From Halopseudomonas sabulinigri (lineage in GTDB: Bacteria; Pseudomonadota; Gammaproteobacteria; Pseudomonadales; Pseudomonadaceae): 34,229 nucleotides of DNA. Shown one piece after another: positions 18,897 through 31,939 of this stretch. The translations under genes were made by a program, and so were the position numbers. The notes under the pieces were generated by a model that worked only from the letters and a program-made list of their open reading frames with translations, did not search any database and was not told the origin of the DNA. The stretch spans positions 1 to 34,229 of the forward strand of contig DRHT01000042.1 of assembly GCA_011053055.1 (NCBI GenBank), in the 5' to 3' direction. Within the stretch, counting starts at the first letter, position 1, and every line of letters starts with the position of its first letter.

Positions 18897-18913
18897 TGGC
18901 ATTAAGAATGCAT
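18897..18913 (+). promoter_or_regulatory. Sigma-54 (-24/-12) promoter of the guanidine-riboswitch operon
   Basis: TGGCATTAAGAATGCAT has TGGCA at -24 and TGCA at -12, with the GG and GC pairs twelve bases apart as required. It differs from TGGCACG-N4-TTGCA at three positions. Transcription would start near 18923, just upstream of the riboswitch. The preceding 50 bases are AT-rich, which suits activator-driven looping. A sigma-70 promoter (TTGGCT with GGTAAT, 17 apart) overlaps but is a poorer match. Confidence 0.7.
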
Positions 18914-18948
18914 TGGTAATCAGTGAAACGGGATGAGTCGTCATTGAC

Positions 18949-19088
18949 TCATGACGCATCACACACTGGAGTGGTATCTAGGCGAACTAGGGTTCCGGCC
19001 TGCAATGCAGGTGACTGGTCCGAGAGTTTTCCGGTTCTCAAGGAATGAGAGCTACACGGCGGGATAAAAGCCCGGGAGATCGTCATGA
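18949..19088 (+). ncRNA. Guanidine-I riboswitch (ykkC RNA)
   Basis: The aptamer has all three conserved blocks in order: CTAGGGTTCCG (18987-18997), GACTGGTCCGAGAG (19013-19026) and GGGATAAAAGCCCGGGAGA (19061-19079). These match what I recall of the B. subtilis ykkC element. Hairpins support the fold: CCTGC/GCAGG (18999-19011), TTCTC/GAGAG (19035-19051) and CGGG/CCCG (19060-19074). A long closing helix pairs TCATGACG-c-ATC (18949-18960) with GATCGTCATGA (19078-19088), eleven pairs with one bulge. The ligand of subtype 1 is free guanidinium. Subtypes 2a-2c bind nucleotides; the near-identity to the ykkC aptamer and the creatininase-containing operon downstream favour subtype 1, but I have not checked each ligand-contacting base. 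Confidence 0.93.
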
Positions 19089-19112
19089 CGACGTCGCCCC
19101 GTGCCTTTTTTT
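19055..19112 (+). terminator. Riboswitch expression platform with candidate terminator
   Basis: Downstream of the aptamer CCCCGTGCC is followed by seven T (19106-19112), 21 bases before the first gene. CACGG (19055-19059) in the third conserved block can pair with CCGTG (19099-19103), and CGGG (19073-19076) with CCCG (19098-19101). Either pairing breaks the aptamer, so ligand binding should prevent termination and switch the operon on. The stem is imperfect, so details are uncertain. Confidence 0.55.
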
Positions 19113-19133
19113 CACTGTGTAGGAGTTGTACCC

Positions 19134-20141
19134 ATGACCGCCACACGTTTCAGCTTTATCCGCAAGACCCTGGCAGGCGCCAGTCTGGCTGCCGCTGCCG
19201 TGCTGTCTCCCGTTGCTGCGCAAGCGGCCGACTCCATGACCATCGGCACTGTTGTTTGGGCCGGTTACGGTCCTTTCTATGTCGCCGATAAACTCGACCT
19301 GTATGACCAGTTTGGTCTCGACGTGGAATTGCAGTTCTTCAACGATCCTGCCTTGTTGCCCTCTGCTATGGCCGGTGGTGCTGTAGACGGCGCCATGTTG
19401 ACCTACGATCAGGTCGTCGGCGCAGTGGCCAAGGGGCTCAAGCACCGCGTAGTGATGCCAATCGACTTCTCCAACGGCGGTGATGCCATTGTTGCCGACA
19501 AGTCGATAGCCTCTGTTGCCGACTTCAAGGGCAAGCAGGTGGGCTATAACCCGCTGTCTCCTTCCGATTTTCTGCTGGCATACGCGCTGCAGGTCAATGG
19601 CATGACTGAAAAGGATATCAAGGGCGTCAACATGACCCCTGAAGGCATCCCCAGTGCCATGGCGTCTGGCAGCCTGCCAGTTGGCGTCACCTACGAGCCC
19701 AATGTGTCACAGATCCTCGGTATGGCCGGTGGTGACAAATTCCACGTGGTCTATTCCTCCAAAGACGCGCCGGGTTTGATTACCGATGTGCTGGCCTTCG
19801 ACGAGAAAATGATTGCTGCCGAACCCGAAGCCATCACCGCGATGATCAAGGGCTATCAGGCGGGCCTCGAGTATATGCAGGCGCATCCGCAAGAATCGTC
19901 GGAAATCATCGGCAAGGTACTGGGTGTAAGCGGTGCCGAAGCTATCGAGCAGATGGAAGGCGTCTACAACATTCCGCTGGACGAGATGGGCAAGAACTTC
20001 ATCGAGTCTGAGGAAACCACCTCTTTTTACGGTAGCGGCGCGGTGATTGCCGACCTGCTGGTTAAGAACAAGCAGATTCCGTCAGTACCGGATTTTGCCG
20101 ACACCTTCGATGCCAGCTTTGTTAGCGACCTGACCGAGTAA
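19134..20141 (+). CDS. NitT/TauT-type ABC transporter substrate-binding protein
   Basis: 335-residue periplasmic binding protein. A Sec signal peptide (about 1-28, ending AAQA) precedes the mature start ADSMTIGTVVWAGYGPFYVA. The family pattern is YGPFYVADKLDLYDQFGLDVELQFF, here cited in parts: YGPFYVAD, GLDVELQFFND, the SNGGDAIVADKSI segment and GKQVGYNPLSPSDFLL. It is related to binding proteins for taurine, sulfonates, nitrate and thiamine precursors. I chose ATG 19134, eight bases after AGGAG; an upstream GTG at 19101 lies within the terminator. It is the first gene after the riboswitch, so it probably binds a guanidino compound. Its permease and ATPase are the last two genes of the operon, 6.5 kb downstream. 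Confidence 0.9.
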   Translation: MTATRFSFIRKTLAGASLAAAAVLSPVAAQAADSMTIGTVVWAGYGPFYVADKLDLYDQFGLDVELQFFNDPALLPSAMAGGAVDGAMLTYDQVVGAVAKGLKHRVVMPIDFSNGGDAIVADKSIASVADFKGKQVGYNPLSPSDFLLAYALQVNGMTEKDIKGVNMTPEGIPSAMASGSLPVGVTYEPNVSQILGMAGGDKFHVVYSSKDAPGLITDVLAFDEKMIAAEPEAITAMIKGYQAGLEYMQAHPQESSEIIGKVLGVSGAEAIEQMEGVYNIPLDEMGKNFIESEETTSFYGSGAVIADLLVKNKQIPSVPDFADTFDASFVSDLTE

Positions 20142-20195
20142 TCAACCGGGCAGGTGCTCGGCGCCTGCCCACTGCATTGTTTTCCGGGAGGAAGC

Positions 20196-21233
20196 ATGTC
20201 TACATCCCAATCCAAGTCCAAGCCGCTTTACCGCTATGCCGATGGCCGGGTCTTGAACAGTCTGGCGATGGCCTACAGTCTGGGCAGTTACGCCGCAGGT
20301 ATAGGCTTGTTACTGGCACCCCACTGGCTGGCCAACGTGGCCGGGCTGTTGTTGCTGGCGCACGCGATGATTATCGGCGCCTATCTGATTCATGAGTTTG
20401 CCCATGGCACCATCTTCAGCAAGCCGGCGCACAACGCGCGGGCGGGCGAAATTTTCAGCTGGATGACCGGCGGCTGTTATGCCGATTTCCAGGATCTGCG
20501 CCGCAAGCATATGCGCCATCATGTTGATCGCGCCGATGTCATCACCTTCGACAGCAAGGTTTTTCTCAATAGCCTGCCCGCCTGGGTACGCAAATTGGTG
20601 CTCGCACTGGAATGGGCTTATGTGCCGGCAGTCGAGCTGATCATGCATTTCTATGTGGTGCTGTTGCCCTTTATCAGTAGCAGCGAGAAACATCGTGCTC
20701 GGCGCGGCAAAGTACTCGGTGTTTTGTTGATACGCACGGCGCTGTTCGCATTGCTTGGCTGGTTGTCGTTCAGTGCGCTGGTTCTCTACTGCGTAGCCTG
20801 GATGATCATGGTCACGGTGCTGCGCTTCGCGGACGCTTATCAGCACACTTACGATGCCTTTGCTGTGCTCGAAGACGACGGCAAGATTCCCTCGGACAAG
20901 CTGCGTGATCGCGCCTACGAGCAGACCAATACCTTCAGCAATGTAGTTTCGCTGCGCTGGCCTGCGCTGAACCTTCTGCTACTCAATTTTGCTTATCACA
21001 ACGCGCATCACGAGAAGCCCGTCGCTCCTTGGTATCGGTTGCCGAAGATGCACGCAGAGTTATACGGCGATGGCTACCGGCAGGTGGTGCCTATGGATGA
21101 ATTGTTGAGCAGCTTTCATCGTCATCGCGTGCGCCGTGTGCTGAGCGAGGACTACGGTGAGTTCGTCGATGGACCCAAGCGTGCCGAGAACTTTTACGGC
21201 GCAGTCGGCGTGTCCTTTTTGACGGCGGTATGA
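20196..21233 (+). CDS. Membrane di-iron fatty acid desaturase/hydroxylase-like protein
   Basis: 345-residue integral membrane enzyme with the three-histidine-box pattern of non-heme di-iron desaturases and hydroxylases: HEFAH (H66, H70), HMRHH (H105, H108, H109) and HNAHH (H268, H271, H272), with an extra H217 in DAYQHTYD. Hydrophobic segments lie at about 23-65, 140-160 and 176-210. Such enzymes use O2 and an electron donor to hydroxylate or desaturate unactivated carbons; the superfamily also includes alkane hydroxylase and carotenoid ketolase. In this operon the likely substrate is a small guanidino compound rather than a fatty acid, an inference from context. No ferredoxin or reductase gene is adjacent. 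Start ATG 20196 follows GGGAGGA; its stop overlaps the next gene (ATGA). Confidence 0.85.
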   Translation: MSTSQSKSKPLYRYADGRVLNSLAMAYSLGSYAAGIGLLLAPHWLANVAGLLLLAHAMIIGAYLIHEFAHGTIFSKPAHNARAGEIFSWMTGGCYADFQDLRRKHMRHHVDRADVITFDSKVFLNSLPAWVRKLVLALEWAYVPAVELIMHFYVVLLPFISSSEKHRARRGKVLGVLLIRTALFALLGWLSFSALVLYCVAWMIMVTVLRFADAYQHTYDAFAVLEDDGKIPSDKLRDRAYEQTNTFSNVVSLRWPALNLLLLNFAYHNAHHEKPVAPWYRLPKMHAELYGDGYRQVVPMDELLSSFHRHRVRRVLSEDYGEFVDGPKRAENFYGAVGVSFLTAV

Positions 21234-22021
21234 CTATGCATACGCTCGATTACCAAAATCGCACTGTGCTTATCAGTGGTGCAGCTAGCGGCATAGGGCG
21301 CGGCCTCGCCGAAGCATTTGCAGCGCAGGGCGCGCGACTGGAACTGCTGGATCGTAACGGCGACGCGCTGGCCGCTGTGGTCGAAGTGCTGTCTGGCATA
21401 ACCGAGGTACAGGGTTATGCGCTTGATCTGAACGATGACTTGGCCGTTAGCGAGTATGCGCTGGCGCTAGCTGATCGCTGCGAGCGGGTAGACGTGCTGA
21501 TTAACAACGCTGGGATGGAACAGCCGACGCCGCTGTTGGATGACCGTGCCGACGCCAATCGTCGTTGGCAGAACCAGTTGGATAACAACGTGGTGTCGAT
21601 GCTGCGTCTTACCCGCGCTCTGCTGCCGTTGCTTGGTGAGGGCAGCAGTGTGATCAACCAGTCGTCAATCTGGGGCTTGAGTGCGGTGACTGGGTTCTCT
21701 GCCTATGTTGCTAGCAAGCATGCAGTAATAGGTCTGACCCGCTCGTTGGCATGGGAGCTGGGAGCGCAGCGAATTCGGGTGAACGCGGTGTGTCCGGGCT
21801 GGATCGCTACCGATGCGGCCATGGCGTCGTTACGCAGCATGGCGCAGGAGAGTGGTCGTACTGAGGAGGATGAGCTGCGGCATATTCTCTCGGCTCAGGC
21901 GATTCCCGAGCTGCTCACACCTGCTGATTTGGCCGGTACTTTCTTATTTCTCGGCTCCCCTGCCGCAGCTGCCATGACCGGGCAGGCGTTAGTAGTGAGC
22001 CGTGGTGAGGTGATGCATTGA
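21230..22021 (+). CDS. SDR-family dehydrogenase 1
   Basis: 263-residue classical short-chain dehydrogenase/reductase. The cofactor motif is SGAASGIG (16-23, Ser replacing the usual first Thr), followed by D41 at the end of the second strand, which favours NAD over NADP. NNAG is at 92-95. The catalytic set is S146, Y159 and K163 (YVASK). The C-terminus (ALVVSRGEVMH) lacks the usual GG-containing ending. It overlaps the desaturase stop by four bases and the next gene by one, so it is translated in the same unit. It probably oxidises an alcohol made by the upstream hydroxylase; the substrate cannot be read from sequence. Confidence 0.88.
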   Translation: MTMHTLDYQNRTVLISGAASGIGRGLAEAFAAQGARLELLDRNGDALAAVVEVLSGITEVQGYALDLNDDLAVSEYALALADRCERVDVLINNAGMEQPTPLLDDRADANRRWQNQLDNNVVSMLRLTRALLPLLGEGSSVINQSSIWGLSAVTGFSAYVASKHAVIGLTRSLAWELGAQRIRVNAVCPGWIATDAAMASLRSMAQESGRTEEDELRHILSAQAIPELLTPADLAGTFLFLGSPAAAAMTGQALVVSRGEVMH

Positions 22022-22776
22022 TGGACGTTCAAGATTTTAACGGCCAGCGGGTGCTGGTAACGGGCGCGGCGACCGGTATTGGTCGCGCTTGCGCGCTGAT
22101 GCTGGCGTTGCGCGGTGCTGAGGTATGGATCAATCACCTCGGTCAGGGCGATGCCAGTGCGGCCCTGGTGGATGAAATCGTAACGGCCGGTGGGCGGGCG
22201 ACGGCGATTGAAGCGGATGTCAGCGACCCGTACGCGGTAGCCGAAATGTTCGCGTGCATCACCGCCAGCGGTCCACTGGACGGTTTAGTGAATAACGCCG
22301 GGATCATTCAAGAGCAGCCCTTTTTGGATACCTCTGAGGAGGATTGGCGGCAGATCATGGCAGTAGACCTGGATGGCGTATACCGCTGCTGTCGTCACGC
22401 CTTGGAGGGCATGACTGTCGCCGGGCGCGGTGCGATCGTCAATATCAGCTCGGAATTGGGCCACTTGGGGCGTGAGAACTACGTGGCCTATTGCACCGCC
22501 AAGGCGGGCGTAATCGGCCTGACCAAATCGCTAGCGCGCGAGTTTGCGCCAGCTATTCGGGTCAACGGCGTAGCGCCGGGCCCGGTGGATACCGCGATGG
22601 TATCGCTGGAGCACATGAGCGAAGAGTGGATTGCCAAGGAGCTAGCCATACCGGCTGGGCGTCTTGGCCGTCCCGAGGAGATCGCGGCAGCGGTCTGCTT
22701 CCTGTTGTCGCCGTCAGCCAGTTTCTTTACCGGCCAGATGTTGGGTGCCAATGGCGGTGCCTGGATGGGTGGCTGA
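22021..22776 (+). CDS. SDR-family dehydrogenase 2
   Basis: 251-residue classical SDR resembling FabG-like and sugar/alcohol dehydrogenases. TGAATGIG (14-21), NNAG (91-94), S144, Y157 and K161 (YCTAK) are present; the helix-4 Asn is Asp here (AVDLDG), which is seen in other members. The C-terminus GQMLGANGGAWMGG is typical. ATG 22021 overlaps the previous stop (TGATG); a TTG three bases upstream is less likely. Two SDRs side by side suggest two oxidation steps, alcohol to aldehyde or ketone on successive intermediates, or two enantiomers. The two proteins are only distantly similar, so a recent duplication is unlikely. Confidence 0.9.
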   Translation: MDVQDFNGQRVLVTGAATGIGRACALMLALRGAEVWINHLGQGDASAALVDEIVTAGGRATAIEADVSDPYAVAEMFACITASGPLDGLVNNAGIIQEQPFLDTSEEDWRQIMAVDLDGVYRCCRHALEGMTVAGRGAIVNISSELGHLGRENYVAYCTAKAGVIGLTKSLAREFAPAIRVNGVAPGPVDTAMVSLEHMSEEWIAKELAIPAGRLGRPEEIAAAVCFLLSPSASFFTGQMLGANGGAWMGG

Positions 22777-23660
22777 TGTTACGTCCCGAATGGGTGCTGA
22801 TTCTCGCCACCATCCTGTGGGGCACGAGTTGGGTACCTTTGCAGGCGTTTGCCGAGTTAGGCATCAGCGGCATGCCGATGGTTTTAGCCAGTTACGGGCT
22901 GATCGCCTTGTTTGCCTTGCCCTTGCTCTATTGGCAACGGCGAGCCTGGTGGCCGCAGCGCTGGGGCTTGTTGGGGATCATCCTGTTCGGCGGCTGGGCG
23001 AATGCGTCGCTGATTTCGTCGCTATCGCTGGCGGAGGATTTGGTGCGTGTGATGCTGCTGTTTTATCTGGCTCCCGTGTGGGGTGTTTTAGGCGGTTGGC
23101 TGCTGTTACGTGAGCGCATCACTGCACTGCGACTGCTGGCGCTGGGGTTGGCGCTGGTGGGTATTGGGCTGACGCTGGGAGTAGGGCGCGATACGTTCAG
23201 CCGCATGACCTCGATTGACTGGTTGGCTGTCAGCGCCGGTCTGGGTTTTGCCCTGAACAACCTGGCCACCCGCGCGGCGGATCGCGTGCCAATGGCGAGT
23301 AAAACGGTCGCGGCTTTTGTGGGTAGCGCTCTTTTTGCTGGTTTGGCCTGCGCTTTGTACGGCGAGTGGTGGCCAGCGCTGGGAGTGCAGACCTGGTTAT
23401 GGATTGTGCTCTTCGCGGTTGGCTGGTTGTTGCTCGCAACGCTTGGCGCCCAGTACGGGGTTACCCACCTGCCAGCCAGTAAAGCTGCGGTGTTGGTGGT
23501 ATTCGAATTGATTGCAGCGGTGCTCTCGGTGGCTTGGTTGAACGATGAGCCGATTGGCCTGCGTACGTGGGTCGGCGCGGGAATGGTCAGTTTGGCCGCC
23601 GTTATGGCCGGTTGGCCGGAACAAAACATTGAAAACGAATTAGCGAGGAGCTCGTCCTGA
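22776..23660 (+). CDS. DMT superfamily transporter, EamA type
   Basis: 294-residue inner-membrane protein with about ten hydrophobic helices in two EamA halves (VLILATILWGTSWVPLQAFA at the start; LAVSAGLGFALNNLATRAA opens the second half). EamA proteins export amino acids or other small metabolites. They belong to the same superfamily as the small SMR pumps, one class of which (Gdx) exports guanidinium under guanidine riboswitches. ATG 22776 overlaps the previous stop (TGATG). The longer frame upstream lies within the SDR gene and is not used. In this operon it may remove guanidinium or a toxic intermediate, which is inference. Confidence 0.88.
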   Translation: MLRPEWVLILATILWGTSWVPLQAFAELGISGMPMVLASYGLIALFALPLLYWQRRAWWPQRWGLLGIILFGGWANASLISSLSLAEDLVRVMLLFYLAPVWGVLGGWLLLRERITALRLLALGLALVGIGLTLGVGRDTFSRMTSIDWLAVSAGLGFALNNLATRAADRVPMASKTVAAFVGSALFAGLACALYGEWWPALGVQTWLWIVLFAVGWLLLATLGAQYGVTHLPASKAAVLVVFELIAAVLSVAWLNDEPIGLRTWVGAGMVSLAAVMAGWPEQNIENELARSSS

Positions 23661-24430
23661 TGACAAGTGTGTATATGGATCAAATCAGCTGGGTCGAATA
23701 CCAACAGCGAGTGGAGCAGGGTGCAGTGGTGTTTCTGCCCTGTGGTGCGACTGAACAGCACGGCCCGCACTTGCCGCTAGGTACCGATGCGTTGCTGTCC
23801 ACGGCCTTGAGCGCGGATGTAGCCGCGCAGGTGGGAGGCATTGTCGCCCCGGCGCTGGCTTACGGTTACAAGTCACAGCCCAAGTGTGGCGGCGGTCAAC
23901 ATTTCTGTGGCACTACCAGTCTCGATGGCGCCACGCTGATTGCGCTAGTGCAGGACGCCGTACGCGAGTTTGCCCGTCACGGTGTTAAGCGTTTGGTACT
24001 GGTGCTAGGGCATTACGAAAATACCTGGTTTGTCACCGAAGGCATCCAACTAGCGCAGCGTGAATTGGGTACGGACTGTGAGCTTGAAGTAATGCGGCTT
24101 GAACACTGGGACTTCTGTAAGGAAGAGACGCTGGATGACATCTTCCCTGATGGGTTCCCTGGTTTTGCGCTCGAACACGCGGCGGTCATCGAAACCTCGC
24201 TCATGCTGCATTACCTCCCGCACTTGGTCAGCCTGGACAAGATACCCAACGATCCACCCGCTGACTTCCCACCCTATGACATGTATCCGACGCGCACCGA
24301 GTGGGTGCCGCCGTCCGGCGTGTTGTCTTCGGCGTTGGGCTCGACCGCTGAAAAGGGCGAGCGCATGGCTGATGACATTGTCAGTGGCATCGCGGCGGCG
24401 GTGCGGTACGAATTCAAATTGGAGGCCTGA
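23660..24430 (+). CDS. Creatininase family amidohydrolase
   Basis: 256-residue metal-dependent cyclic amidohydrolase. Aligned from memory to Pseudomonas putida creatininase, the dinuclear metal ligands are all present: E32 and H34 (ATEQHG), D43, H118 and E120 (GHYEN), offset by two from the reference. YGYKSQ, GGGQHF, GTTSLDGATL and PADFPPYDM also match, closer than the MftE or arylcreatininase-like branches. Of the two substrate-contacting tryptophans one is kept (W150, in HWDF) while the other, W174 of the reference, is F169 (GFALEH). This suggests creatinine or a near relative as substrate with altered specificity. ATG 23660 overlaps the previous stop (TGATG). No creatinase is encoded in the window. 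Confidence 0.9.
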   Translation: MTSVYMDQISWVEYQQRVEQGAVVFLPCGATEQHGPHLPLGTDALLSTALSADVAAQVGGIVAPALAYGYKSQPKCGGGQHFCGTTSLDGATLIALVQDAVREFARHGVKRLVLVLGHYENTWFVTEGIQLAQRELGTDCELEVMRLEHWDFCKEETLDDIFPDGFPGFALEHAAVIETSLMLHYLPHLVSLDKIPNDPPADFPPYDMYPTRTEWVPPSGVLSSALGSTAEKGERMADDIVSGIAAAVRYEFKLEA

Positions 24431-24432
24431 GT

Positions 24433-25083
24433 ATGCTCGCCACGCTGCAACCTGAGCGCACTGCATTACTGCTGATCGACATGCAACGCGATTTCTGCGC
24501 GCCGGGCGGATATGCCGATCAGGCAGGGCTGGATATCCAGCGACTGCGCGCACCGATTGCTGCGCAGCAGGCTTTGCTGGCTGCGGCGCGAGCGAGCGAA
24601 ATGTTGGTGGTGCATACCCGTGAAGGGCATCGCCCGGACCTATCTGACCTGCCGGCGTGGAAACGTTTGCGGGCCGAGCGGAGCGGCGCACCTATAGGTG
24701 TACTTGGGCCATTGGGCCGCTTATTGGTGCGCGGTGAGTACGGTCACGATCTGATTGATGAGCTGCAGCCAAAAACCGGCGAGCCAGTGATCGACAAGCC
24801 GGGCTACTGCGCCTTTGCGGCAACTGACCTTGAGCTGATCTTGCGTACCCGCGGCATCGATACCCTGATCATCACCGGGGTCACCACCGAAGTCTGCGTT
24901 AGCTCCACACTTCGCAGCGCGATTGATCGCGGCTTTAACTGTCTGACCGTGCGCGATGCCTGCGGCTCGGCCTACGTTGATCTGCACGAGGCTGCGCTGG
25001 CGATGATCGCCGTCGAAGGTGGGGTGTTCGGTGAGTGTTGCGACAGCGCGGCGCTGCTCAAATATCTACAGGAGGCAGCATGA
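24433..25083 (+). CDS. Isochorismatase-fold cysteine hydrolase
   Basis: 216-residue amidohydrolase with the catalytic triad D16 (LLIDMQRDF), K122 (VIDKPGYCAF) and C155 (GVTTEVCVSST). HTREGHRPDL at 61-70 and GEYGHDLIDEL at 101-111 are features I associate with the group of ureido/biuret-type hydrolases such as biuret hydrolase, RutB and N-carbamoylsarcosine amidase. The expected chemistry is release of ammonia and CO2 from an N-carbamoyl group. It starts three bases after the creatininase stop and its own stop overlaps the next start (ATGA). In a creatinine-like pathway this enzyme would fit an N-carbamoyl intermediate; the substrate is inferred. Confidence 0.88.
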   Translation: MLATLQPERTALLLIDMQRDFCAPGGYADQAGLDIQRLRAPIAAQQALLAAARASEMLVVHTREGHRPDLSDLPAWKRLRAERSGAPIGVLGPLGRLLVRGEYGHDLIDELQPKTGEPVIDKPGYCAFAATDLELILRTRGIDTLIITGVTTEVCVSSTLRSAIDRGFNCLTVRDACGSAYVDLHEAALAMIAVEGGVFGECCDSAALLKYLQEAA

Positions 25084-25862
25084 CGCAGGTACAAAAACTC
25101 TGGCCATTGCTCACTGCGACCCACCATTACGACAAGTCGATCTCAACCCGCGGACGTGGCCACGGCGTGCAGATAGAGGCGCCGATTCTGGCCTTTCTGA
25201 TTGAGACCAAGCAGGGCAGGGTGCTGTTCGATGTGGGCTGTGATTACAACAAGCTTACCGATCCGACGCTGCGGGCGCAGTGGTACGACCCCGAAACTTT
25301 CCCCATGGGGCCGCCAAAAATGAGTGAAGAGCAGCGTTTACAAGCTCACTTGGCGCGACTCGGTTTAACCACTGGCGATATCGATATGGTTTTTCTCAGT
25401 CACCTGCATTTTGACCATGCAGGCGGCCTTTGTGATCTCTGCGGTGCTGAAGTGCACGTACATGAAGACGAACTACAGGCTGCTCGCGAGCCAGCAGATG
25501 ATGCTTATTTTGCTGACGATTTTGCCGGTAACGTGCGCTGGCGTCTGCAGCAGGATGAGTACGATCTGCTGCCAGGCTTGCGCGCGATCAACACCCCGGG
25601 CCACACCGCCGGGCACATGTCGCTGATGGTCGAGATGCCGCAGGGCGCGCCGGTGATTCTGGCTGGCGATGCCGCCGACTTACAGGAAAACCTGGACGAT
25701 GAAATTGCGCCCGGGCTGTGCTGGCGCGACCGTGAAGACATGGCCGTTCAGAGCATCCGTAAGCTCAAGCAGATTGCCAGTGACACCGGCGCAGATATTT
25801 GGCCGAACCATGACATGGCCTTTTGGCGAACCCTTAAACGCTTTCCGGAGTACCACCAATGA
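25080..25862 (+). CDS. Metallo-beta-lactamase-fold hydrolase, AHL-lactonase-like
   Basis: 260-residue cytoplasmic zinc hydrolase. The metal-binding set is complete: H108, H110, D112, H113 (SHLHFDHAGG), H175 in TPGHTAGH, D197 (LAGDA) and H244 (WPNHD). Overall it is closest to the N-acyl homoserine lactonase group, which opens lactones, but those annotations are often wrong for enzymes in catabolic operons. It could open a lactone or cleave an ester, amide or thioester made by earlier steps. ATG 25080 follows GGAGG and overlaps the previous stop (ATGA); the next gene also overlaps by four bases. Confidence 0.88.
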   Translation: MTQVQKLWPLLTATHHYDKSISTRGRGHGVQIEAPILAFLIETKQGRVLFDVGCDYNKLTDPTLRAQWYDPETFPMGPPKMSEEQRLQAHLARLGLTTGDIDMVFLSHLHFDHAGGLCDLCGAEVHVHEDELQAAREPADDAYFADDFAGNVRWRLQQDEYDLLPGLRAINTPGHTAGHMSLMVEMPQGAPVILAGDAADLQENLDDEIAPGLCWRDREDMAVQSIRKLKQIASDTGADIWPNHDMAFWRTLKRFPEYHQ

Positions 25863-26617
25863 GCCCCGTTCCTATTGGCTATCACGGTGTCTGGCAGCGC
25901 ACGCTATTGCGTTTGGCCGATGGCACGGAAGACACCACTACGCAGGTGTACTGGTTACAGAGTGCGCACCTGCATGCTGATTTACGCATTCCCGACCCCA
26001 GGCCCAGCCTGCCGCTCGAACGCGTTCGGCAGGCTGGTTTCGCGGGCATCACCGAAGCCAGCGAACACCGCTGCCAGTGGCATCGCGCAATCGACTTTCA
26101 TCCAGACAGCGGTACCGATATTGGCAACATGCACTTTGTCAGCGCCGACGAGGTGCATGAAACCGCGCTCGATGGCAGTTACCTGGAAATCTGGAAACGC
26201 CTGCCTGACTCCATTGGCCCGGTTGAGGAGAGTTGGCTGCACAGTGCCGATGACTCCGGTCGTCGTGCCTGTGTGCTGCGCGCCGGAGACTATTTCATGT
26301 TTGCTGCTGACCGCCCATTACGGCTGAACGGACGTCTCTCGTTGCAACATTATCTGCAGCACGAAAGCACCCGCGACGTGGAGTTGCTTTTGGGGTGTGA
26401 GTTGACCTTCGGCCGTATTCAGGGCGGTGGCCAGCCCTGGCAGATTCTTTACAGCAGCTTGCCTGCCTCCAGCGGTGGCCTTTTCGCGGTGCCTGCTGAC
26501 GCGCAAGTCTGGGATGAGTTGCCAGTAGCCTGGCTTGGCATTTACCCGCCCGAAAACGGCTGGTGCCGGGCGCCTTTGCCCCGCCTGCAGGATTTGAATA
26601 TGGAGATACTGGCATGA
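25859..26617 (+). CDS. Uncharacterised protein, possibly HRI1-like beta-barrel
   Basis: 252 residues, no signal peptide, no membrane segment. I do not recognise a characterised bacterial relative. The pattern WQRTLLRLADGTEDTTTQV then YWLQSAHLHADLRIP, with a later VLRAGDYFMFAADRP, suggests antiparallel beta strands of a calycin-like barrel and reminds me of the yeast HRI1 family; that resemblance is weak and from memory. Cys, His and Asp are not arranged as an obvious active site. It overlaps both neighbours by four bases (ATGA), so it is a firm part of the operon. It might bind a pathway intermediate, but function is unknown. Confidence 0.6.
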   Translation: MSPVPIGYHGVWQRTLLRLADGTEDTTTQVYWLQSAHLHADLRIPDPRPSLPLERVRQAGFAGITEASEHRCQWHRAIDFHPDSGTDIGNMHFVSADEVHETALDGSYLEIWKRLPDSIGPVEESWLHSADDSGRRACVLRAGDYFMFAADRPLRLNGRLSLQHYLQHESTRDVELLLGCELTFGRIQGGGQPWQILYSSLPASSGGLFAVPADAQVWDELPVAWLGIYPPENGWCRAPLPRLQDLNMEILA

Positions 26618-27456
26618 ACGCACCCGCCCCATTACCGGAAACTCAGGCCGCCGCTCCGGTGCGCAAGCGCCGCTCTCGCTGGTGGGTAGTACGCGGCACG
26701 CTGGCGCCGCGTACTGCCGGTTTGCTCACCGCCTTTGGTTTGATTGCGCCTTTCTTCATTTGGTGGCTTTACACCGCATTGGGGCTGAATGATCCGCTGT
26801 TTATGCCGGGCCCGATAGCGGTTGCGGAGCGCACCTGGAACTGGTGGCTGGAAGACGGCCTATGGGGTGACGTCACCATCAGTGTTTACCGGGTCATGGC
26901 GGGCTTTCTTATTTCGGCGTTGATTGCACTACCGCTTGGGCTGTATTTGGGCACCTATAAACCAGTGCAGGCCACACTGGAGCCGTTGATCGACTTTATT
27001 CGTTATATGCCGGCGGTGGCTTTCATTCCATTGGTCATGCTTTGGGTAGGCATTGGTGAAGGATCGAAGATTCTCATCATCTTTATCGGTACTTTCTTCC
27101 AGATGGTGCTGATGGCCGCCGAGGATATCCGCCGAGTGCCCATGGCGCAGATTGAAGCGGCGCAGACCATGGGCGCTTCACGTACTGAGATTATTCGCCT
27201 GGTGGTGCTGCCGTCAGCCCGCCCGGCGCTGCTCGATACCTTGCGCATTACCTGTGGCTGGGCCTGGACCTATCTGGTGGTTGCCGAGCTGGTGGCCTCC
27301 AACTCGGGGCTGGGGTACGCCATTCTGCGAGCTCAGCGCTATATGCATACCGATAAGATTTTTGCCGGAATCTTGCTGATTGGCTTGATCGGCCTGCTGA
27401 CCGACCAGGCATTCCGCTGGCTTGGCCGCCGGGCATTTCACTGGCAGAAGAGGTGA
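26614..27456 (+). CDS. NitT/TauT-type ABC transporter permease
   Basis: 280-residue inner-membrane permease of the BPD family. A basic cytoplasmic N-terminus (VRKRRSRWW) is followed by about six helices. The EAA loop that docks the ATPase is seen in EAAQTMGASRTEIIRLVVLPSA, here split as EAAQTMGASRTEI and VVLPSARP. ATG 26614 overlaps the preceding stop (ATGA); the frame extends upstream inside the previous gene and is not used. It ends three bases before the ATPase start. Together with the ATPase and the binding protein at 19134 it forms the importer. Confidence 0.92.
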   Translation: MNAPAPLPETQAAAPVRKRRSRWWVVRGTLAPRTAGLLTAFGLIAPFFIWWLYTALGLNDPLFMPGPIAVAERTWNWWLEDGLWGDVTISVYRVMAGFLISALIALPLGLYLGTYKPVQATLEPLIDFIRYMPAVAFIPLVMLWVGIGEGSKILIIFIGTFFQMVLMAAEDIRRVPMAQIEAAQTMGASRTEIIRLVVLPSARPALLDTLRITCGWAWTYLVVAELVASNSGLGYAILRAQRYMHTDKIFAGILLIGLIGLLTDQAFRWLGRRAFHWQKR

Positions 27457-27459
27457 ACC

Positions 27460-28302
27460 ATGAGTAACTCCTGTATCAGCATCCGCAATGTGGGCAAGCA
27501 GTTCGTGACCCGCGACCAAACCATCGAGGCGCTTCGCGACGTAAATCTTGAGGTGCAGCCCAACGAGTTCATCACCTTTGTAGGCGCCTCCGGCTGCGGC
27601 AAGTCGACTTTGCTGCGGATTCTCGCCGGACTTGAAACTCACAGCAGCGGTGAAATTCTGCTACATGACCAGCCGATAGATGGCCCCGGCGTAGACCGCG
27701 CTATGGTGTTTCAGCACTACAGTCTTTACCCCTGGCTGAACGTGAATCAGAACATTAAATTCTGCCGTCAGCTAAAAGTGATTTCCGACACCGTACACAG
27801 TCAGTCGGACGTCGAAACCGCCTCTGGTCGCGCCGATGCGTTGCTCAATCTGATGGGCCTGCGAGACTTCAGTGAGGCTTATCCCAGCCAGTTGTCCGGC
27901 GGCATGCAGCAGCGGGTGGCAATTGCTCGTGCGCTGATGCCACGCCCTGATTTTCTGTTAATGGATGAACCTTTTGGTGCGCTCGACGCGCAGACCCGTG
28001 AGGTCATGCATGACCTGATTCGGCATGTGCATCGCTTGGAAAAGAGCACCATTTTGTTTGTCACCCATGATGTGGAAGAGGCTATTTATCTAGGCAGCCG
28101 GATTGTTTTAATGGCGCCGCGTCCAGGCCGAATCGACAGTATCTATGACGTGCCACTACCGAAGGTTCGTCATCAGGACATGAAGCTGGAGCCCGACTTT
28201 ATCGAGCTTAAACGCCAAATTCTGGTGCGTATACGTGAAACCTCAGGGGTGCAGACCGATCTTGATCAGCTGGCCCGGTTGACCGAGGGCGCGGACCTCT
28301 AA
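27460..28302 (+). CDS. NitT/TauT-type ABC transporter ATP-binding protein
   Basis: 280-residue ATPase. Walker A GASGCGKST, the Q-loop VFQHYSLYPW, signature LSGGMQQRV, Walker B FLLMDEPFGALD and the switch histidine FVTHDVEEA are all present. It follows the permease after three bases, with start ATG 27460 behind AGAGGTGAACC, and is the last gene of the operon. A stretch after the Q-loop (about 103-123, SDTVHSQSDVETASGR) is longer than in the closest TauB/SsuB proteins. It belongs with the binding protein at 19134. Confidence 0.93.
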   Translation: MSNSCISIRNVGKQFVTRDQTIEALRDVNLEVQPNEFITFVGASGCGKSTLLRILAGLETHSSGEILLHDQPIDGPGVDRAMVFQHYSLYPWLNVNQNIKFCRQLKVISDTVHSQSDVETASGRADALLNLMGLRDFSEAYPSQLSGGMQQRVAIARALMPRPDFLLMDEPFGALDAQTREVMHDLIRHVHRLEKSTILFVTHDVEEAIYLGSRIVLMAPRPGRIDSIYDVPLPKVRHQDMKLEPDFIELKRQILVRIRETSGVQTDLDQLARLTEGADL

Positions 28303-28357: not shown

Positions 28358-28371
28358 CGCTATATATAGCG
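28358..28371. promoter_or_regulatory. AT-centred palindrome upstream of sutA
   Basis: CGCTATATATAGCG is a perfect 14-base palindrome 27 bases before the sutA start. It may be the -10 region of a sutA promoter (TATATA), an operator, or, with the T-rich stretch that follows, a weak terminator for the ABC operon. The sequence does not settle which. Confidence 0.4.
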
Positions 28372-28397
28372 TGTTTTCCCTTGGGAGGGTGTGGGGC

Positions 28398-28709
28398 ATG
28401 AGTGATGATGATATGGACGATGATCTTGATGACGTGGAATCCGCCACGGATAACGATCAGCAGCATGACAGCGATGACGATTCCGATTCAGACGGTGAAG
28501 TGGTCACCAGTAAGCCACGCAAGAAGAACGCGCCGGCAGAAGACTCGGACGGCGTATCTGTCGAGGCCAAGGAGCGTGAACGCGATATGTTAGCGCGCCA
28601 GATGGAAGAGTTTCTGTCGCGCGGCGGTAAGGTGCAGGAAATTGACTCCAACGTGGTCTCCGACCCGCCGAAGAAGCCGGATAGTAAATACGGCAGTAGA
28701 CCCATCTAA
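28398..28709 (+). CDS. sutA: RNA-polymerase-binding regulator SutA
   Basis: 103-residue acidic, mostly disordered protein. The first half is rich in Asp, Glu and Ser; a short helix (KERERDMLARQMEEFLSRGG) follows, and the C-terminus reads KPDSKYGSRPI. This matches SutA, described in Pseudomonas aeruginosa as a protein that binds the beta subunit of RNA polymerase and supports ribosomal and maintenance gene expression in slow growth. Start ATG 28398 follows GGGAGGG; the frame continues upstream to 28371 without matching sequence. It has its own promoter-like region and is not obviously part of the guanidine operon. The C-terminal tail makes the call strong. Confidence 0.92.
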   Translation: MSDDDMDDDLDDVESATDNDQQHDSDDDSDSDGEVVTSKPRKKNAPAEDSDGVSVEAKERERDMLARQMEEFLSRGGKVQEIDSNVVSDPPKKPDSKYGSRPI

Positions 28710-28769
28710 CAGGCCGCTGTTAACGGCCTGCTGCATCTGTTGTCCGCCACTGCCCAACTAGGGCAGTGG
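28710..28769. terminator. Paired hairpins between convergent sutA and yigB
   Basis: Two hairpins stand side by side: CAGGCCG (28710-28716) with CGGCCTG (28724-28730), and CCACTGCCC (28747-28755) with GGGCAGTGG (28761-28769). Both are perfect, with loops of 7 and 5 bases. Neither has a T run, so ending transcription here is plausible but unproven. Confidence 0.5.
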
Positions 28770-28777
28770 TAAGCGCT

Positions 28778-29485
28778 TCAGCGCGCGTACTTCACGTACC
28801 GATTTAACCACGGTGGGATTTCGCTCAGGCAGCGTATTTCACCGTGCGGGCGCGGTTGTTGTGGCCAAGCTTTGCCCTGGGGGTTGAACCACAGGGTATG
28901 CATGCCGACATCCAGCGCGCCCTGAATGTCGTCACCCGGATGATCGCCAATGTGCAGAGCTTGAGACGGCTCTACACCAGCAGCCTCTAAAGCAGTTTGG
29001 AAGGGCGCGGCATCGGGTTTGCTCAGGCCGACTTCATCAGCAGACACGATGATCTTAAAGAAGCGATCTAACCCCAGTCGTCGAACATCTGCGTTGCCGT
29101 TGGAAATACTCGCTAATTGGTACTGGCGTGAGAGTAGCTCCAGCACTACCTCCACATGCGGGAAGTACTCTAACTGGTGACGGGCATCGAGAAATACTTT
29201 GAAGCCCTGTTTGGCCAACTTACTTGCCTGCTTGTCGGAGTAGCCGGCTTTACGTAGTCCCAGTTCCAACACGGCGATGCGCAATGGCGTGACGCGGTGG
29301 CGGAGCTCAGGCTGCGCAGCTAGCACCTCGTTGCGCAGGGTCATACGAGCCTCGAAGTCCAATTGCTGAGCAAACTTCGGGGCGTTCTTTTCCAGCCAGT
29401 GCAGCAGGGTCTGCTCGGCGGCAACCACGACTGATTCGGTTTCCCACAAGGTGTTGTCTAGATCAAAGGTGACGAGCTGAATCAT
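28778..29485 (-). CDS. yigB: HAD-superfamily phosphatase, YigB-like
   Basis: 235-residue HAD phosphatase; YigB in E. coli dephosphorylates the riboflavin precursor 5-amino-6-(5-phosphoribitylamino)uracil. Motif 1 is FDLDNTLW with nucleophile D8 and D10, motif 2 SISNGN, motif 3 a Lys in LSKPDAAPF, and motif 4 [14 protein letters not shown] helical cap lies between motifs 1 and 2. Its ATG overlaps the xerC stop by four bases, the same linkage as xerC-yigB in E. coli, which supports the name. Other HAD activities cannot be excluded. Confidence 0.88.
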
Positions 29486-30423
29486 TTGGTATCTGCTTTG
29501 CGTTTGGCGCGCGGGTGGGCTTTGTCGTAGACCTGCGCGAGATGTTGAAAATCCAGGTGAGTATAGATTTGCGTAGTGCTGATGTCGGCATGCCCGAGTA
29601 GCTCCTGCACAGCACGCAAATCGCCGGAAGACTCAAGCATGTGGCTGGCAAACGAATGCCTGAGCATGTGCGGATGCAGGTGCTGGCCGATGCGTTCCAC
29701 GCCACGTTGGCGTACGCGCAGTTGAATCGCCCGCGTGGTTAAACGCGTGCCGCGTTGGCTGACAAATACCGGTTGGGCGACGCCACTCTGCACCGGGCGC
29801 ACTTTAAGCCAGGCCTGCAATGCGTTACGGGCAATGCGACCCACGGGCAGTAAACGGGTTTTATTGCCCTTGCCGAGCACGCGCACTTCGCCTTCTTGCA
29901 GGTCCAGGTCGGCCACATCCAGCCCAGCTAGTTCCGACAGGCGCAGGCCGGAGGAGTAGAACAGCTCCAACATCGCCTGATCACGTATTTGTAACCAGTC
30001 CGGATCGCCGTTGTCGTCAAGCAACTGGCTGGCGAGATCGGCATCCAGAGTCTTGGGCAGTTTTTTGCCGGCCTTGGGCGCGCGCAGGTCCAGCGCCGGA
30101 TTACTCTGGCAGCGCCTTTCGCGCAACAGGTAACGGTAAAAACTGCGAATGGCGCTGAGCTGGCGTTGCAGGCTGCGCGGCGAAATGCCACGTTGATGTT
30201 GCTGGGCGATGTGGTGACGTAATTGGGCGTTGTTGAGTTGATCCCAGCTGCTCAATTGGCGCTCACGGTTGAACTGCAATAATTGCTGTAGGTCGTGAGC
30301 GTAGGCTTCCAGCGTACGGGGCGATAATTGACGCTCGGTGCGCAGGTGACGCAGAAAGTCGTTTATATCCTTGTCTGCCGCCGGCGCAGCAGGGGCGCCG
30401 GCAGTCTCAGGCGTGGGCTTCAT
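29482..30423 (-). CDS. xerC: Site-specific tyrosine recombinase XerC
   Basis: 313-residue recombinase that resolves chromosome dimers at dif with XerD. The N-terminal SAM-like domain (about 20-105, with [20 protein letters not shown]) precedes the catalytic domain. The catalytic residues are seen in [12 protein letters not shown] (Arg), the beta-hairpin Lys in [24 protein letters not shown] (His, Arg), [16 protein letters not shown] (His and the nucleophile Y287). ATG 30423 lies inside the DUF484 gene, overlapping it by 17 bases; a longer frame to 30465 is not used. Its position after dapF and DUF484 is the usual one, separating it from phage integrases. Confidence 0.95.
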
Positions 30424-31111
30424 CAGCCATCGGGCGTTGGCGCAGTAAAATGCGCGCCAGGGCATCGGCTACATAGCCGAGGAACAAAGTGCCGGTGGCG
30501 CTGCGATACTGTTGCGCGTCCTTGCTACCCAATGCCAGTACGCCGTGCAGGCCTTGATGGCTGATAGGCGCAAACGCGGTGGAGGCAACCTCTTCGCCGT
30601 CGTCGCCAAACAGAAAGCGCAGCTCGTCCGGGCGCAACGCACCACTGACTGGCTTACCGTTATCGAGCAGATGCCCAATGGCGGCTTTTGCTTCAGTGTG
30701 GGTAACGCAATGGGCATTACTGTAGCGATCGGCTTCGGTGAATAGAATCAGGCAGACGAAGGGGATCTGAAAGTCGTTGCGCAGGCTGTCTTCCAGGCTG
30801 GCTACCACTTGATCGAGACTTTGAGCTTCGAGCATGCCGAGGATCAGACGGCGACTCTTGTCGAACAGCCGGTCATTCTCGCGGGCGGTATCCATTAACT
30901 GGTTCAGGCGGTGACGCACATCGATGTTGCGCTCACGCAGCAGTTTGACCTGGCGCTCTACCAGCGAGACTGCTTGGCCGCGCTGATGCGGAATGATCAG
31001 GTCGGCCAGCAATTCGTCATGCTCGGCGAAGAAGGCCGGGTGGCGCCGTAGGTACTCGGCTACTTGCTCGGCGTCGATCTCTTCACTGCTCTGCGGCTTT
31101 TGCTCGCTCAT
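30407..31111 (-). CDS. DUF484 family protein
   Basis: 234-residue member of DUF484, a GAF-like cytoplasmic family nearly always found between dapF and xerC in gammaproteobacteria. The N-terminal [22 protein letters not shown] is diagnostic, followed by a coiled coil ([19 protein letters not shown]) and a C-terminal GAF-like sheet domain ([24 protein letters not shown]). Its ATG at 31111 overlaps the dapF stop by four bases; the frame continues upstream inside dapF. No function is known; it may be linked with XerC. Confidence 0.92.
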
Positions 31112-31938
31112 ACGCGTATCTGTCCCTCGTAGACCCGGGTGGCCGGGCCAGTCATCAGTACGGGTTGACCGGGGCCGGCCCATTCTATTTGCAAGTTGCC
31201 ACCCGGCAATTGAATCTGTACCGGCGAGCGTAACAGACCCAAGCGGATGCCAGCGACCGCTGCGGCGCACGCACCGGTGCCACAGGCTTGGGTTTCGCCA
31301 ACGCCGCGCTCAAATACCCGCAGCTTTGCGTGATCAGGATCGATCACTTGCATGAAACCCGCGTTAACCTTGCGCGGAAAGCGCGGGTGCGCCTCTATCT
31401 GCGCGCCCAAGCGTTCAAGCATGCCATTGTTGATGTCGTCCACCAGAGTCACGCAATGCGGGTTGCCCATGGAGACGGCAGCGACCATCAGTTGCTCGCC
31501 AGCGACCTCGAAGGCATATTGCTCGGCTTCTTGCTCGGCGATAAAAGGCACGTCTGCCGGGGTGAAGCGCGGCGCCCCCATATCCACAGTTACCTGCCCG
31601 TCGCGGCGTACGTGCAGGGAGATAGGCCCGCCGGCAGTTTCCACGTTGATGACATTCTTGGCGGTCAGGCGTTTATCCTGAACAAAGCGGGCGAAGCAGC
31701 GCGCGCCGTTGCCACATTGCTCTACTTCGCTGCCGTCGGCGTTATAAATGCGATAACGAAAGTCGGCGTCCGGACAGCCAGGCGGTTCGACCACCAGCAA
31801 CTGGTCGAAGCCAATGCCCGTGTAGCGGTCGCTCCATTGGCGGATCTGCTTAGGTGACAGCTGCACGTGCTGGGTGACCAGGTCGATGACCATAAAGTCA
31901 TTGCCCAGACCGTGCATCTTGGTGAATCGCAACAGCAT
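31108..31938 (-). CDS. dapF: Diaminopimelate epimerase
   Basis: 276-residue PLP-independent epimerase that converts LL- to meso-diaminopimelate, the precursor of lysine and of peptidoglycan cross-links. The two catalytic cysteines are C75 (EQCGNGAR) and C219 ([14 protein letters not shown]). [15 protein letters not shown] is the typical start. The ATG at 31938 lies just after the lysA stop with one base between; an upstream extension to 32022 would lie within lysA. It is followed by DUF484, xerC and yigB with overlapping genes, so all five form an operon with lysA. Confidence 0.97.
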
Positions 31939-31939
31939 G

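What the first reader, a model, noticed from the sequence alone, without database searches (positions are those of the whole stretch)
18897..28302. Guanidine-I riboswitch heading an eleven-gene oxidative and hydrolytic operon
A clear ykkC/guanidine-I aptamer (18949-19088) precedes a compact operon of binding protein, di-iron desaturase-like enzyme, two SDRs, EamA transporter, creatininase, isochorismatase-fold hydrolase, MBL-fold hydrolase, unknown protein, ABC permease and ATPase. Known guanidine-I operons usually encode SMR/MATE-type exporters, the urea/guanidine carboxylase system or ureohydrolase-type guanidinases; none is in this operon. The gene set fits uptake and breakdown of a substituted or cyclic guanidine: oxygenation of a carbon, oxidation of the alcohol, ring opening, and release of nitrogen. 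Free guanidinium may be the product or the signal. I do not know whether this combination has been described.
Basis: partly seen in the sequence, partly recalled or inferred. Interest (0 to 1): 0.93.

Follow-up and report, generated by a model that had tools for sequence, protein, structure and literature searches.

The report
Guanidine-releasing operon under a riboswitch
An RNA element of the guanidine-sensing family heads an eleven-gene set, found in related form in many proteobacteria, that is predicted to import larger guanidine compounds and likely cut free guanidine out of them with a membrane iron enzyme and a relative of a known lyase, so that their nitrogen would become usable.

Summary
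Rfam places a Guanidine-I riboswitch at 18976-19080 (85.8 bits, cut-off 63), followed by eleven tightly packed genes. Of 80 relatives fetched with the desaturase-like gene (DES), 74 carry a Guanidine-I element just upstream of the cluster; 3 of the other 6 are contigs cut too short. The most constant genes are SBP, DES and the 'unknown' protein (UNK). UNK is the key: it is a homologue (32% identity, E 1e-21) of MgdL, the N-(hydroxymethyl)guanidine lyase published in October 2025, and keeps its catalytic Asp and Arg. Outside DES clusters this family stood beside the published hydroxylase MgdH or a relative in 15 of 17 loci; here the unrelated membrane di-iron protein DES takes that place. Of 63 Pseudomonadaceae genomes with DES, 61 carry a marker of the guanidine carboxylase pathway. 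My reading: DES hydroxylates an imported N-alkylguanidine, UNK cleaves the hemiaminal, and free guanidine is assimilated through a second riboswitch operon of the same genome. The substrate is open: methylguanidine, or a creatinine-like compound handled with the creatininase, SDRs and hydrolases. I rate it a new variant of a known kind.

The parts
18976..19080 (+). Guanidine-I riboswitch aptamer
   Evidence: Rfam RF00442, 85.8 bits, gathering score 63
19081..19133 (+). Predicted expression platform: CTGTGTAG (19115-19122), overlapping the Shine-Dalgarno TAGGAG (19120-19125), is complementary to aptamer bases CTACACGG (19052-19059); a T tract lies at 19106-19112
   Evidence: Complementarity; sequence; function not tested
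19134..20141 (+). SBP: NMT1/THI5-like periplasmic binding protein
   Evidence: PF09084; 27% identical to the SBP of the own genome's other riboswitch operon, sharing DFSNGxD
20196..21233 (+). DES: FA_desaturase-fold membrane di-iron protein, predicted N-alkylguanidine hydroxylase
   Evidence: PF00487 1.9e-34; eight box histidines kept in 81 of 81 sequences; found with UNK in 65 of 80 loci
21230..22021 (+). SDR1: short-chain dehydrogenase
   Evidence: PF13561, PF00106
22018..22776 (+). SDR2: short-chain dehydrogenase (an ATG lies at 22021)
   Evidence: PF13561, PF00106
22776..23660 (+). EAM: EamA-family transporter
   Evidence: PF00892, two stretches
23660..24430 (+). CRN: creatininase family, with Trp174-Asp175 of the solved enzyme replaced by Phe-Ala
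   Evidence: TIGR04448 381 bits, cut-off 235
24433..25083 (+). ISO: isochorismatase-fold hydrolase nearest to biuret hydrolases
   Evidence: NF050097 273 bits, below its cut-off of 370; 6azo 242 bits
25080..25862 (+). MBL: lactonase-like metallo-beta-lactamase-fold hydrolase
   Evidence: PF00753; lactonases lead the solved-structure list
25859..26617 (+). UNK: MgdL homologue, predicted hemiaminal lyase
   Evidence: 32% identity over 231 aa to MgdL, E 1e-21; D41 and R43 correspond to D49 and R51
26614..27456 (+). PERM: ABC permease
   Evidence: PF00528
27460..28302 (+). ATP: ABC ATPase
   Evidence: PF00005

Best explanation
A Guanidine-I riboswitch heads a conserved operon that likely imports an N-alkylguanidine and is predicted to strip its alkyl group in two steps, hydroxylation by the membrane di-iron protein DES and cleavage of the resulting hemiaminal by UNK, a homologue of the lyase MgdL, which would release free guanidine. 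Shown here by sequence: the riboswitch, the operon, its conservation, the homology of UNK to MgdL with both catalytic residues, and the near-constant pairing of UNK with DES. Inferred: that DES is the hydroxylase, that UNK is a lyase, and that guanidine induces the operon. The released guanidine would be used through the Gca-CgdAB-AtzF pathway; Gca- and CgdA/B-like genes stand in a second riboswitch operon of the same genome (its contig ends behind Gca, and AtzF was not looked for). SDR1, SDR2, CRN, ISO and MBL, which are missing from some clusters, would process a larger precursor or the removed carbon fragment; EamA would export an excess product. Methylguanidine is the simplest substrate; creatinine or creatine, which carry the same kind of N-alkyl groups, is the next.
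For: Riboswitch upstream of the cluster in 74 of 80 relatives. UNK homologous to the published MgdL with its catalytic Asp and Arg (PMC12508155) and grouped with it, apart from a 'long' class, by a branch of support 97/82. UNK in 65 of 80 DES loci, with 13 of the 15 misses being contigs that end within 5 kb behind DES. UNK-family genes outside DES clusters are beside an MgdH-like hydroxylase in 15 of 17 loci, whereas MgdH occurs in 2 of the 90 stretches of the DES set, so DES fills the hydroxylase's place. Eight box histidines in 81 of 81 DES sequences. Of 63 genomes with DES in 298, 63 have Guanidine-I and 61 the CgdAB-subunit-like gene UAAP2, against 117 and 115 of the other 235. Gca or CgdA/B-like genes in the held stretch of 27 of 80 loci.
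Against: No activity was tested. MgdH-like genes of at least 390 bits coexist with DES in 15 of 63 genomes, so DES is not a simple replacement. MgdL was specific for N-(hydroxymethyl)guanidine (PMC12508155), and UNK is only 32% identical. The D-x-R motif is shared by the wider family, L160 and L161 included, which have no MgdH-like neighbour. UNK is missing in L072 and L084 despite 10 kb behind DES, and the riboswitch in L020, L063 and L084 despite about 9 kb upstream. The best explanation gives no firm role to five of the eleven genes. No electron donor for DES is in the operon. Genome counts are not corrected for relatedness.
Confidence: 0.72

Rival explanations
1. The operon serves methylguanidine alone: DES is a convergent methylguanidine hydroxylase, UNK an ordinary N-(hydroxymethyl)guanidine lyase, and the other enzymes deal with formaldehyde or side compounds. 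This is the narrow form of the best explanation.
For: UNK is homologous to MgdL, which is specific for N-(hydroxymethyl)guanidine (PMC12508155); minimal clusters keep only transport, DES and UNK, for example L060.
Against: MgdH-like genes coexist with DES in 15 of 63 genomes; creatininase, SDRs and ISO have no place in methylguanidine breakdown, yet occur in 42 to 47 of 54 loci with full flanks.
Confidence: 0.3
2. A cyclic guanidine such as creatinine is the substrate and hydrolysis is the main route: DES hydroxylates a ring or side-chain carbon, an SDR oxidises the alcohol to an acylguanidine, and CRN and ISO hydrolyse it to guanidine or methylguanidine and an acid; UNK has a helper role.
For: CRN passes the creatininase cut-off; ISO is nearest to biuret hydrolases, whose superfamily holds guanylurea hydrolases; the two SDRs, CRN and ISO occur in 42 to 47 of 54 loci.
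Against: DES and UNK persist where SDR1, SDR2, CRN or ISO are absent; Trp174-Asp175 of creatininase are replaced in 62 of 62; the own genome has no Creatinase_N match, which excludes only the classical next step.
Confidence: 0.12
3. DES acts on membrane lipids and EamA exports guanidine: the operon is a tolerance response to guanidine.
For: PF00487 is mostly annotated as fatty acid desaturase; other guanidine riboswitches control exporters (PMC12508155 introduction).
Against: A periplasmic binding protein with an ABC permease indicates import; the lyase homologue and the link to guanidine assimilation genes have no role in this reading.
Confidence: 0.05

Closest known systems
MgdH-MgdL methylguanidine demethylation operon of Vreelandella boliviensis (PMC12508155, 2025)
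   Same: Guanidine riboswitch control, ABC import genes, link to the Gca-CgdAB-AtzF pathway, and a homologous lyase with the same catalytic Asp and Arg.
   Different: The hydroxylase there is a 2-OG/Fe(II) oxygenase; here it is an unrelated FA_desaturase-fold protein. Creatininase, ISO, MBL, two SDRs and EamA are extra, and the carboxylase genes are in another operon of the genome.
Guanidine carboxylase operons (Gca, CgdAB, AtzF) under Guanidine-I
   Same: Same riboswitch class and related SBP-permease-ATPase transport; present elsewhere in the own genome (L115).
   Different: Those consume guanidine; this operon is predicted to make it.
Guanidine-releasing 2-OG oxygenases: ethylene-forming enzyme, NapI, plant homoarginine-6-hydroxylases (passages of PMC12186494)
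   Same: Hydroxylation at the carbon next to the guanidino nitrogen releases guanidine.
   Different: Those are 2-OG/Fe(II) oxygenases and their hydroxylated products are described as decaying without a lyase (PMC12508155 introduction).
Creatinine catabolism by creatininase and creatinase
   Same: A creatininase-family enzyme.
   Different: No Creatinase_N match in the own genome, two residues of the solved creatininase replaced, and guanidine rather than urea as predicted product.

Membership tests
Guanidine-I riboswitch | Score above Rfam's gathering cut-off over the whole model | tested here: met
   85.8 bits against 63, positions 1-107 of 107
Guanidine-I riboswitch | Binds guanidine | not testable with these tools
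   Needs in-line probing
MgdL (N-(hydroxymethyl)guanidine lyase), for UNK | Sequence homology to the published protein | tested here: met
   32% over 231 aa, E 1e-21; grouped with MgdL against the 'long' class, support 97/82
MgdL, for UNK | Catalytic Asp49 and Arg51 | tested here: met
   UNK D41 and R43; the motif is also kept in the wider family
MgdL, for UNK | Gene beside a guanidine-linked hydroxylase under riboswitch control | tested here: inconclusive
   Riboswitch met; the operon's oxygenase-type protein is DES, not MgdH
MgdL, for UNK | Lyase activity | not testable with these tools
   Needs an enzyme assay
MgdH, for DES | 2-OG/Fe(II) oxygenase fold (PF03171, PF14226) | tested here: not met
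   DES matches only PF00487, MgdH PF03171 and PF14226
Membrane di-iron desaturase/hydroxylase, for DES | PF00487 match and histidine boxes HX3H, HX2HH, HX2HH | tested here: met
   1.9e-34; boxes kept in 81 of 81 sequences
GntB arginine hydroxylase, for DES | NCBIfam cut-off | tested here: not met
   19.5 bits against 380
Creatininase, for CRN | NCBIfam equivalog cut-off | tested here: met
   381 bits against 235
Creatininase, for CRN | Trp174 and Asp175 of the solved enzyme (importance recalled, from no call) | tested here: not met
   Phe or Tyr, and Ala, in 62 of 62 cluster sequences
Classical creatinine catabolism | Creatinase present in the genome | tested here: not met
   No PF01321 match in the own genome; the control search rang in 13 of 14 genomes
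Biuret hydrolase, for ISO | NCBIfam cut-off | tested here: not met
   273 bits against 370
Guanylurea hydrolase GuuH, for ISO | Closest relative is GuuH, or activity on guanylurea | not tested
   No GuuH sequence was compared

The most novel reading that the evidence does not exclude
A further, convergent kind of guanidine-releasing enzyme: a membrane di-iron oxygenase that, with an MgdL-type lyase, N-dealkylates guanidino compounds, and in its full eleven-gene form turns a creatinine-like cyclic guanidine into free guanidine instead of urea, under a riboswitch that senses the product.
Probability: 0.5. Interest if true: 0.82.

Novelty: new variant of a known kind. Interest (0 to 1): 0.73.

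Why it matters
Guanidine riboswitches are widespread, yet few enzymes that make free guanidine are known. This cluster, seen here in Pseudomonadaceae, Burkholderiales and chemolithotrophs such as Acidithiobacillus and Thiobacillus, would add an oxygenase unrelated to the known 2-OG enzymes, give the conserved 'unknown' protein a role, and show that hydroxylase-plus-lyase N-dealkylation of guanidines is a recurring design. It also names testable substrates for genes now annotated as fatty acid desaturase and hypothetical protein.

Tried and rejected
Mutual exclusion of DES and MgdH: rejected, an MgdH-like gene of at least 390 bits coexists with DES in 15 of 63 genomes (read by eye). MBL-UNK and MgdH-UNK fusions: seemed present in stop-to-stop frames of L051 and L119; rejected, because the upstream part is not the other protein. 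Transcription terminator as the general expression platform: of 77 riboswitches, 53 have no T-rich run in the 130 bases behind; among the 45 rows printed, a run close behind the aptamer occurs in the window, L005 and L050, so I favour Shine-Dalgarno masking. The first riboswitch alignment, A2, mixed strands and was replaced by A3. A plasmid DNA search gave only ATPase fragments covering 1%. Extra genes as a hint of the substrate: a methylmalonate-semialdehyde dehydrogenase follows CRN in L055 and L072, too few to decide. Foldseek with the UNK model gave a lipocalin-like barrel and yeast YLR301w, no function. With the DES model it gave two chloroplast motor-complex subunits and FtAlkB, only the first at E below 0.001.

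Papers. PMC12508155: abstract, parts 1-4 of 7 of the text and a passage search (no occurrence of 'desaturase' or 'creatininase'). PMC12186494, PMC11410670, PMC9800807, PMC12625717, PMC13296017: passages only. The others: search listings. In the listings and in those passages I saw no paper that links this cluster to guanidine; the library lacks most subscription papers, and I did not see Sinn 2021, which surveys guanidine operons.
Full report
What was checked. Rfam finds one element above its cut-offs in the window, Guanidine-I at 18976-19080. The own genome has two: this one and one at C1:107160-107261. Eleven + strand genes follow, packed with gaps of -4 to +3 bases except for 54 bases between the first two. 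The protein at 25859-26617 (UNK) has no Pfam or NCBIfam match at E 0.001 and no Pfam match at E 1.

Conservation. An alignment of 19 DES proteins was used to scan the genome collection; 274 stretches encode a relative and the best 80 loci were kept, L005-L084. Searching them with the window's proteins gave the order SBP-DES-SDR1-SDR2-EAM-CRN-ISO-MBL-UNK-PERM-ATP in 27 of 80 loci and the same without MBL in 11. A number of the others are cut by contig ends. Among 54 loci with at least 8 kb before and 8.5 kb behind DES the counts are DES 54 (by construction), SBP 53, UNK 53, CRN 47, ISO 46, EAM 46, SDR2 45, ATP 44, PERM 43, SDR1 42, MBL 39. Smaller forms exist: SBP-DES-UNK-PERM-ATP in Stutzerimonas kirkiae (L060), SBP-DES-MBL-UNK in Acidithiobacillus (L063, L071).

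The riboswitch goes with the cluster. A covariance model made from 19 Guanidine-I elements, the window's included, was run over 90 stretches: the 80 loci plus 10 that I chose, nine from genomes of the family search and one with the own genome's second riboswitch. In 74 of 80 loci an element ends 38-197 bases before the match to the first cluster gene; one of these, L064, is a partial match at a contig end. Of the six without, L030, L056 and L078 are contigs that begin within 0.5 kb of the cluster's first match; L020, L063 and L084 have about 9 kb upstream and no Guanidine-I match in Rfam at E 0.1 either. L084 has a Guanidine-II element before its Gca-like gene.

Genome level. In 298 genomes of the family, 180 have Guanidine-I at E 0.001, 69 have a DES match at E 1e-60, of which 63 score at least 400 bits (my threshold, set after seeing the gap between 468 and 346 bits), and 176 have the CgdAB-subunit-like gene UAAP2 at E 1e-50. 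Reading the lists by handle, all 63 DES genomes have Guanidine-I (others 117 of 235), and 61 of 63 have UAAP2 (others 115 of 235). The two exceptions, G196 and G202, are 83% and 79% complete. Fisher p values are 1e-16 and 6e-14, without correction for relatedness. Sixty-one of the 63 carry two or more Guanidine-I elements (counted by eye). Gca- or CgdA/B-like genes lie in the held stretch in 27 of 80 loci. The own genome's second riboswitch is followed by SBP, permease, ATPase, CgdA/B-like and Gca-like genes (L115); the contig ends there and AtzF was not looked for. The reference genes of L013 are named by NCBIfam urea carboxylase, allophanate hydrolase, UAAP1 and UAAP2; that such a set works as a guanidine pathway is taken from PMC12508155 and its references.

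The unknown protein. A 2025 paper (PMC12508155; [quoted passage not shown] Asp49 and Arg51 are needed. The gene-specific ends of the four published primers for the two genes match one stretch of genome G678 exactly (L163), so its genes are the published ones or those of a near-identical strain. The window's UNK aligns to that MgdL with 32% identity over 231 residues, E 1e-21 for the single comparison. In an alignment of 61 sequences, 25 columns are at least 85% identical in both the UNK and the MgdL rows, among them D49/R51 (UNK D41/R43), W99, E126 and E135. In a tree of 99 rows, UNK and MgdL together are separated from a 'long' class by a branch of support 97/82; MgdL is one clade on a long stem, and UNK as one group is neither shown nor excluded. 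UNK is found by HMM in 65 of 80 DES loci; 13 of the 15 misses are contigs that end less than 5 kb behind DES, and L072 and L084 are misses despite 10 kb. The UNK model is a beta barrel (pLDDT 90), as the paper says of its MgdL model.

Neighbours of the family. In an order-wide search of 390 genomes with the UNK profile, 20 matched: four with the DES-type gene and sixteen with weaker matches. I fetched one stretch for each of the sixteen and added L163. In 15 of these 17 the UNK-family gene stands directly beside an MgdH-like gene; L160 and L161 are the exceptions. L158, L159 and L163 are from the genus of V. boliviensis, so the more independent part is the twelve 'long' loci L146-L157, 12 of 12. 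All 19 loci (18 of 82 genomes) of that genus fetched with MgdL also contain MgdH. In the DES set MgdH occurs in 2 of 90 stretches, L066 and L119. So the family's usual partner is a hydroxylase, and in this cluster DES fills that place. This is the main argument for DES as an N-alkylguanidine hydroxylase. DES keeps the eight box histidines in 81 of 81 sequences; it has no sequence match among solved structures at E 1, and its model, of medium confidence (pLDDT 80), resembles FtAlkB weakly (E 0.08).

Against a plain replacement. In 15 of the 63 DES genomes an MgdH-like gene of at least 390 bits is also present, so DES may serve another guanidino compound. The own genome has only a 41% identical MgdH-like match on another contig. 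MgdL was specific for N-(hydroxymethyl)guanidine in the paper. The D-x-R motif is also kept in the long class and in L160 and L161.

The other enzymes. CRN passes the creatininase cut-off and keeps the residues aligned with the solved enzyme's metal site as I recall it, but Trp174-Asp175 of that enzyme are Phe/Tyr-Ala in 62 of 62 cluster sequences, the window's included. The own genome lacks Creatinase_N. ISO is nearest to biuret hydrolase, below its cut-off; guanylurea hydrolases belong to the same superfamily (PMC9800807 passages). A natural but untested reading is that CRN, the SDRs and ISO bring a larger or cyclic guanidino compound to, or through, the DES-UNK step. The SBP shares DFSNGxD with the SBP of the genome's other riboswitch operon (27% identity).

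Regulation. The aptamer's CTACACGG can pair with a segment overlapping the Shine-Dalgarno of SBP. In 37 of the 46 riboswitches in which an ACACGG core could be read, at least 6 contiguous pairs form with the downstream stretch, against 15% in shuffled sequence; in 35 of these the partner contains GTGTAGG before the start codon. The others of the set were not examined, and most of the 46 are from one bacterial family. Guanidine binding would hold the aptamer strand and free the ribosome site. This is a prediction.

Verdict. It is a new variant of a known kind, with the oxygenase and the extra enzymes as the new part.

Noticed in passing
L146-L157: A longer class of UNK/MgdL relatives (open frames of about 300-380 residues), beside MgdH-like genes in 12 of 12 loci and often beside guanidine-type SBP genes; a likely second hydroxylase-lyase pair of unknown substrate.
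   Followed up: partly
L055:13427-14797 and L072:9778-11271: A CoA-acylating methylmalonate-semialdehyde dehydrogenase gene follows CRN, a possible hint of a three-carbon fragment.
   Followed up: no
L069:15674-17815 and L076:13334-15538: A PAS-GGDEF-EAL gene stands between MBL and UNK.
   Followed up: no
L062, L064, L068, L073: A second DES copy (48-51% identical to the window's) lies in the cluster.
   Followed up: no
L084:2438-2482: A Guanidine-II riboswitch precedes the Gca-like gene next to a DES cluster that has no Guanidine-I match.
   Followed up: no
23660-24430: A creatininase clade in which Trp174-Asp175 of the solved enzyme are Phe/Tyr-Ala, although NCBIfam names it creatininase.
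   Followed up: partly
28371-33193: Behind the operon stand a SutA-domain gene (+) and, on the - strand, genes with HAD hydrolase, phage-integrase-family recombinase, DUF484, DAP epimerase and PLP-dependent decarboxylase domains.
   Followed up: no
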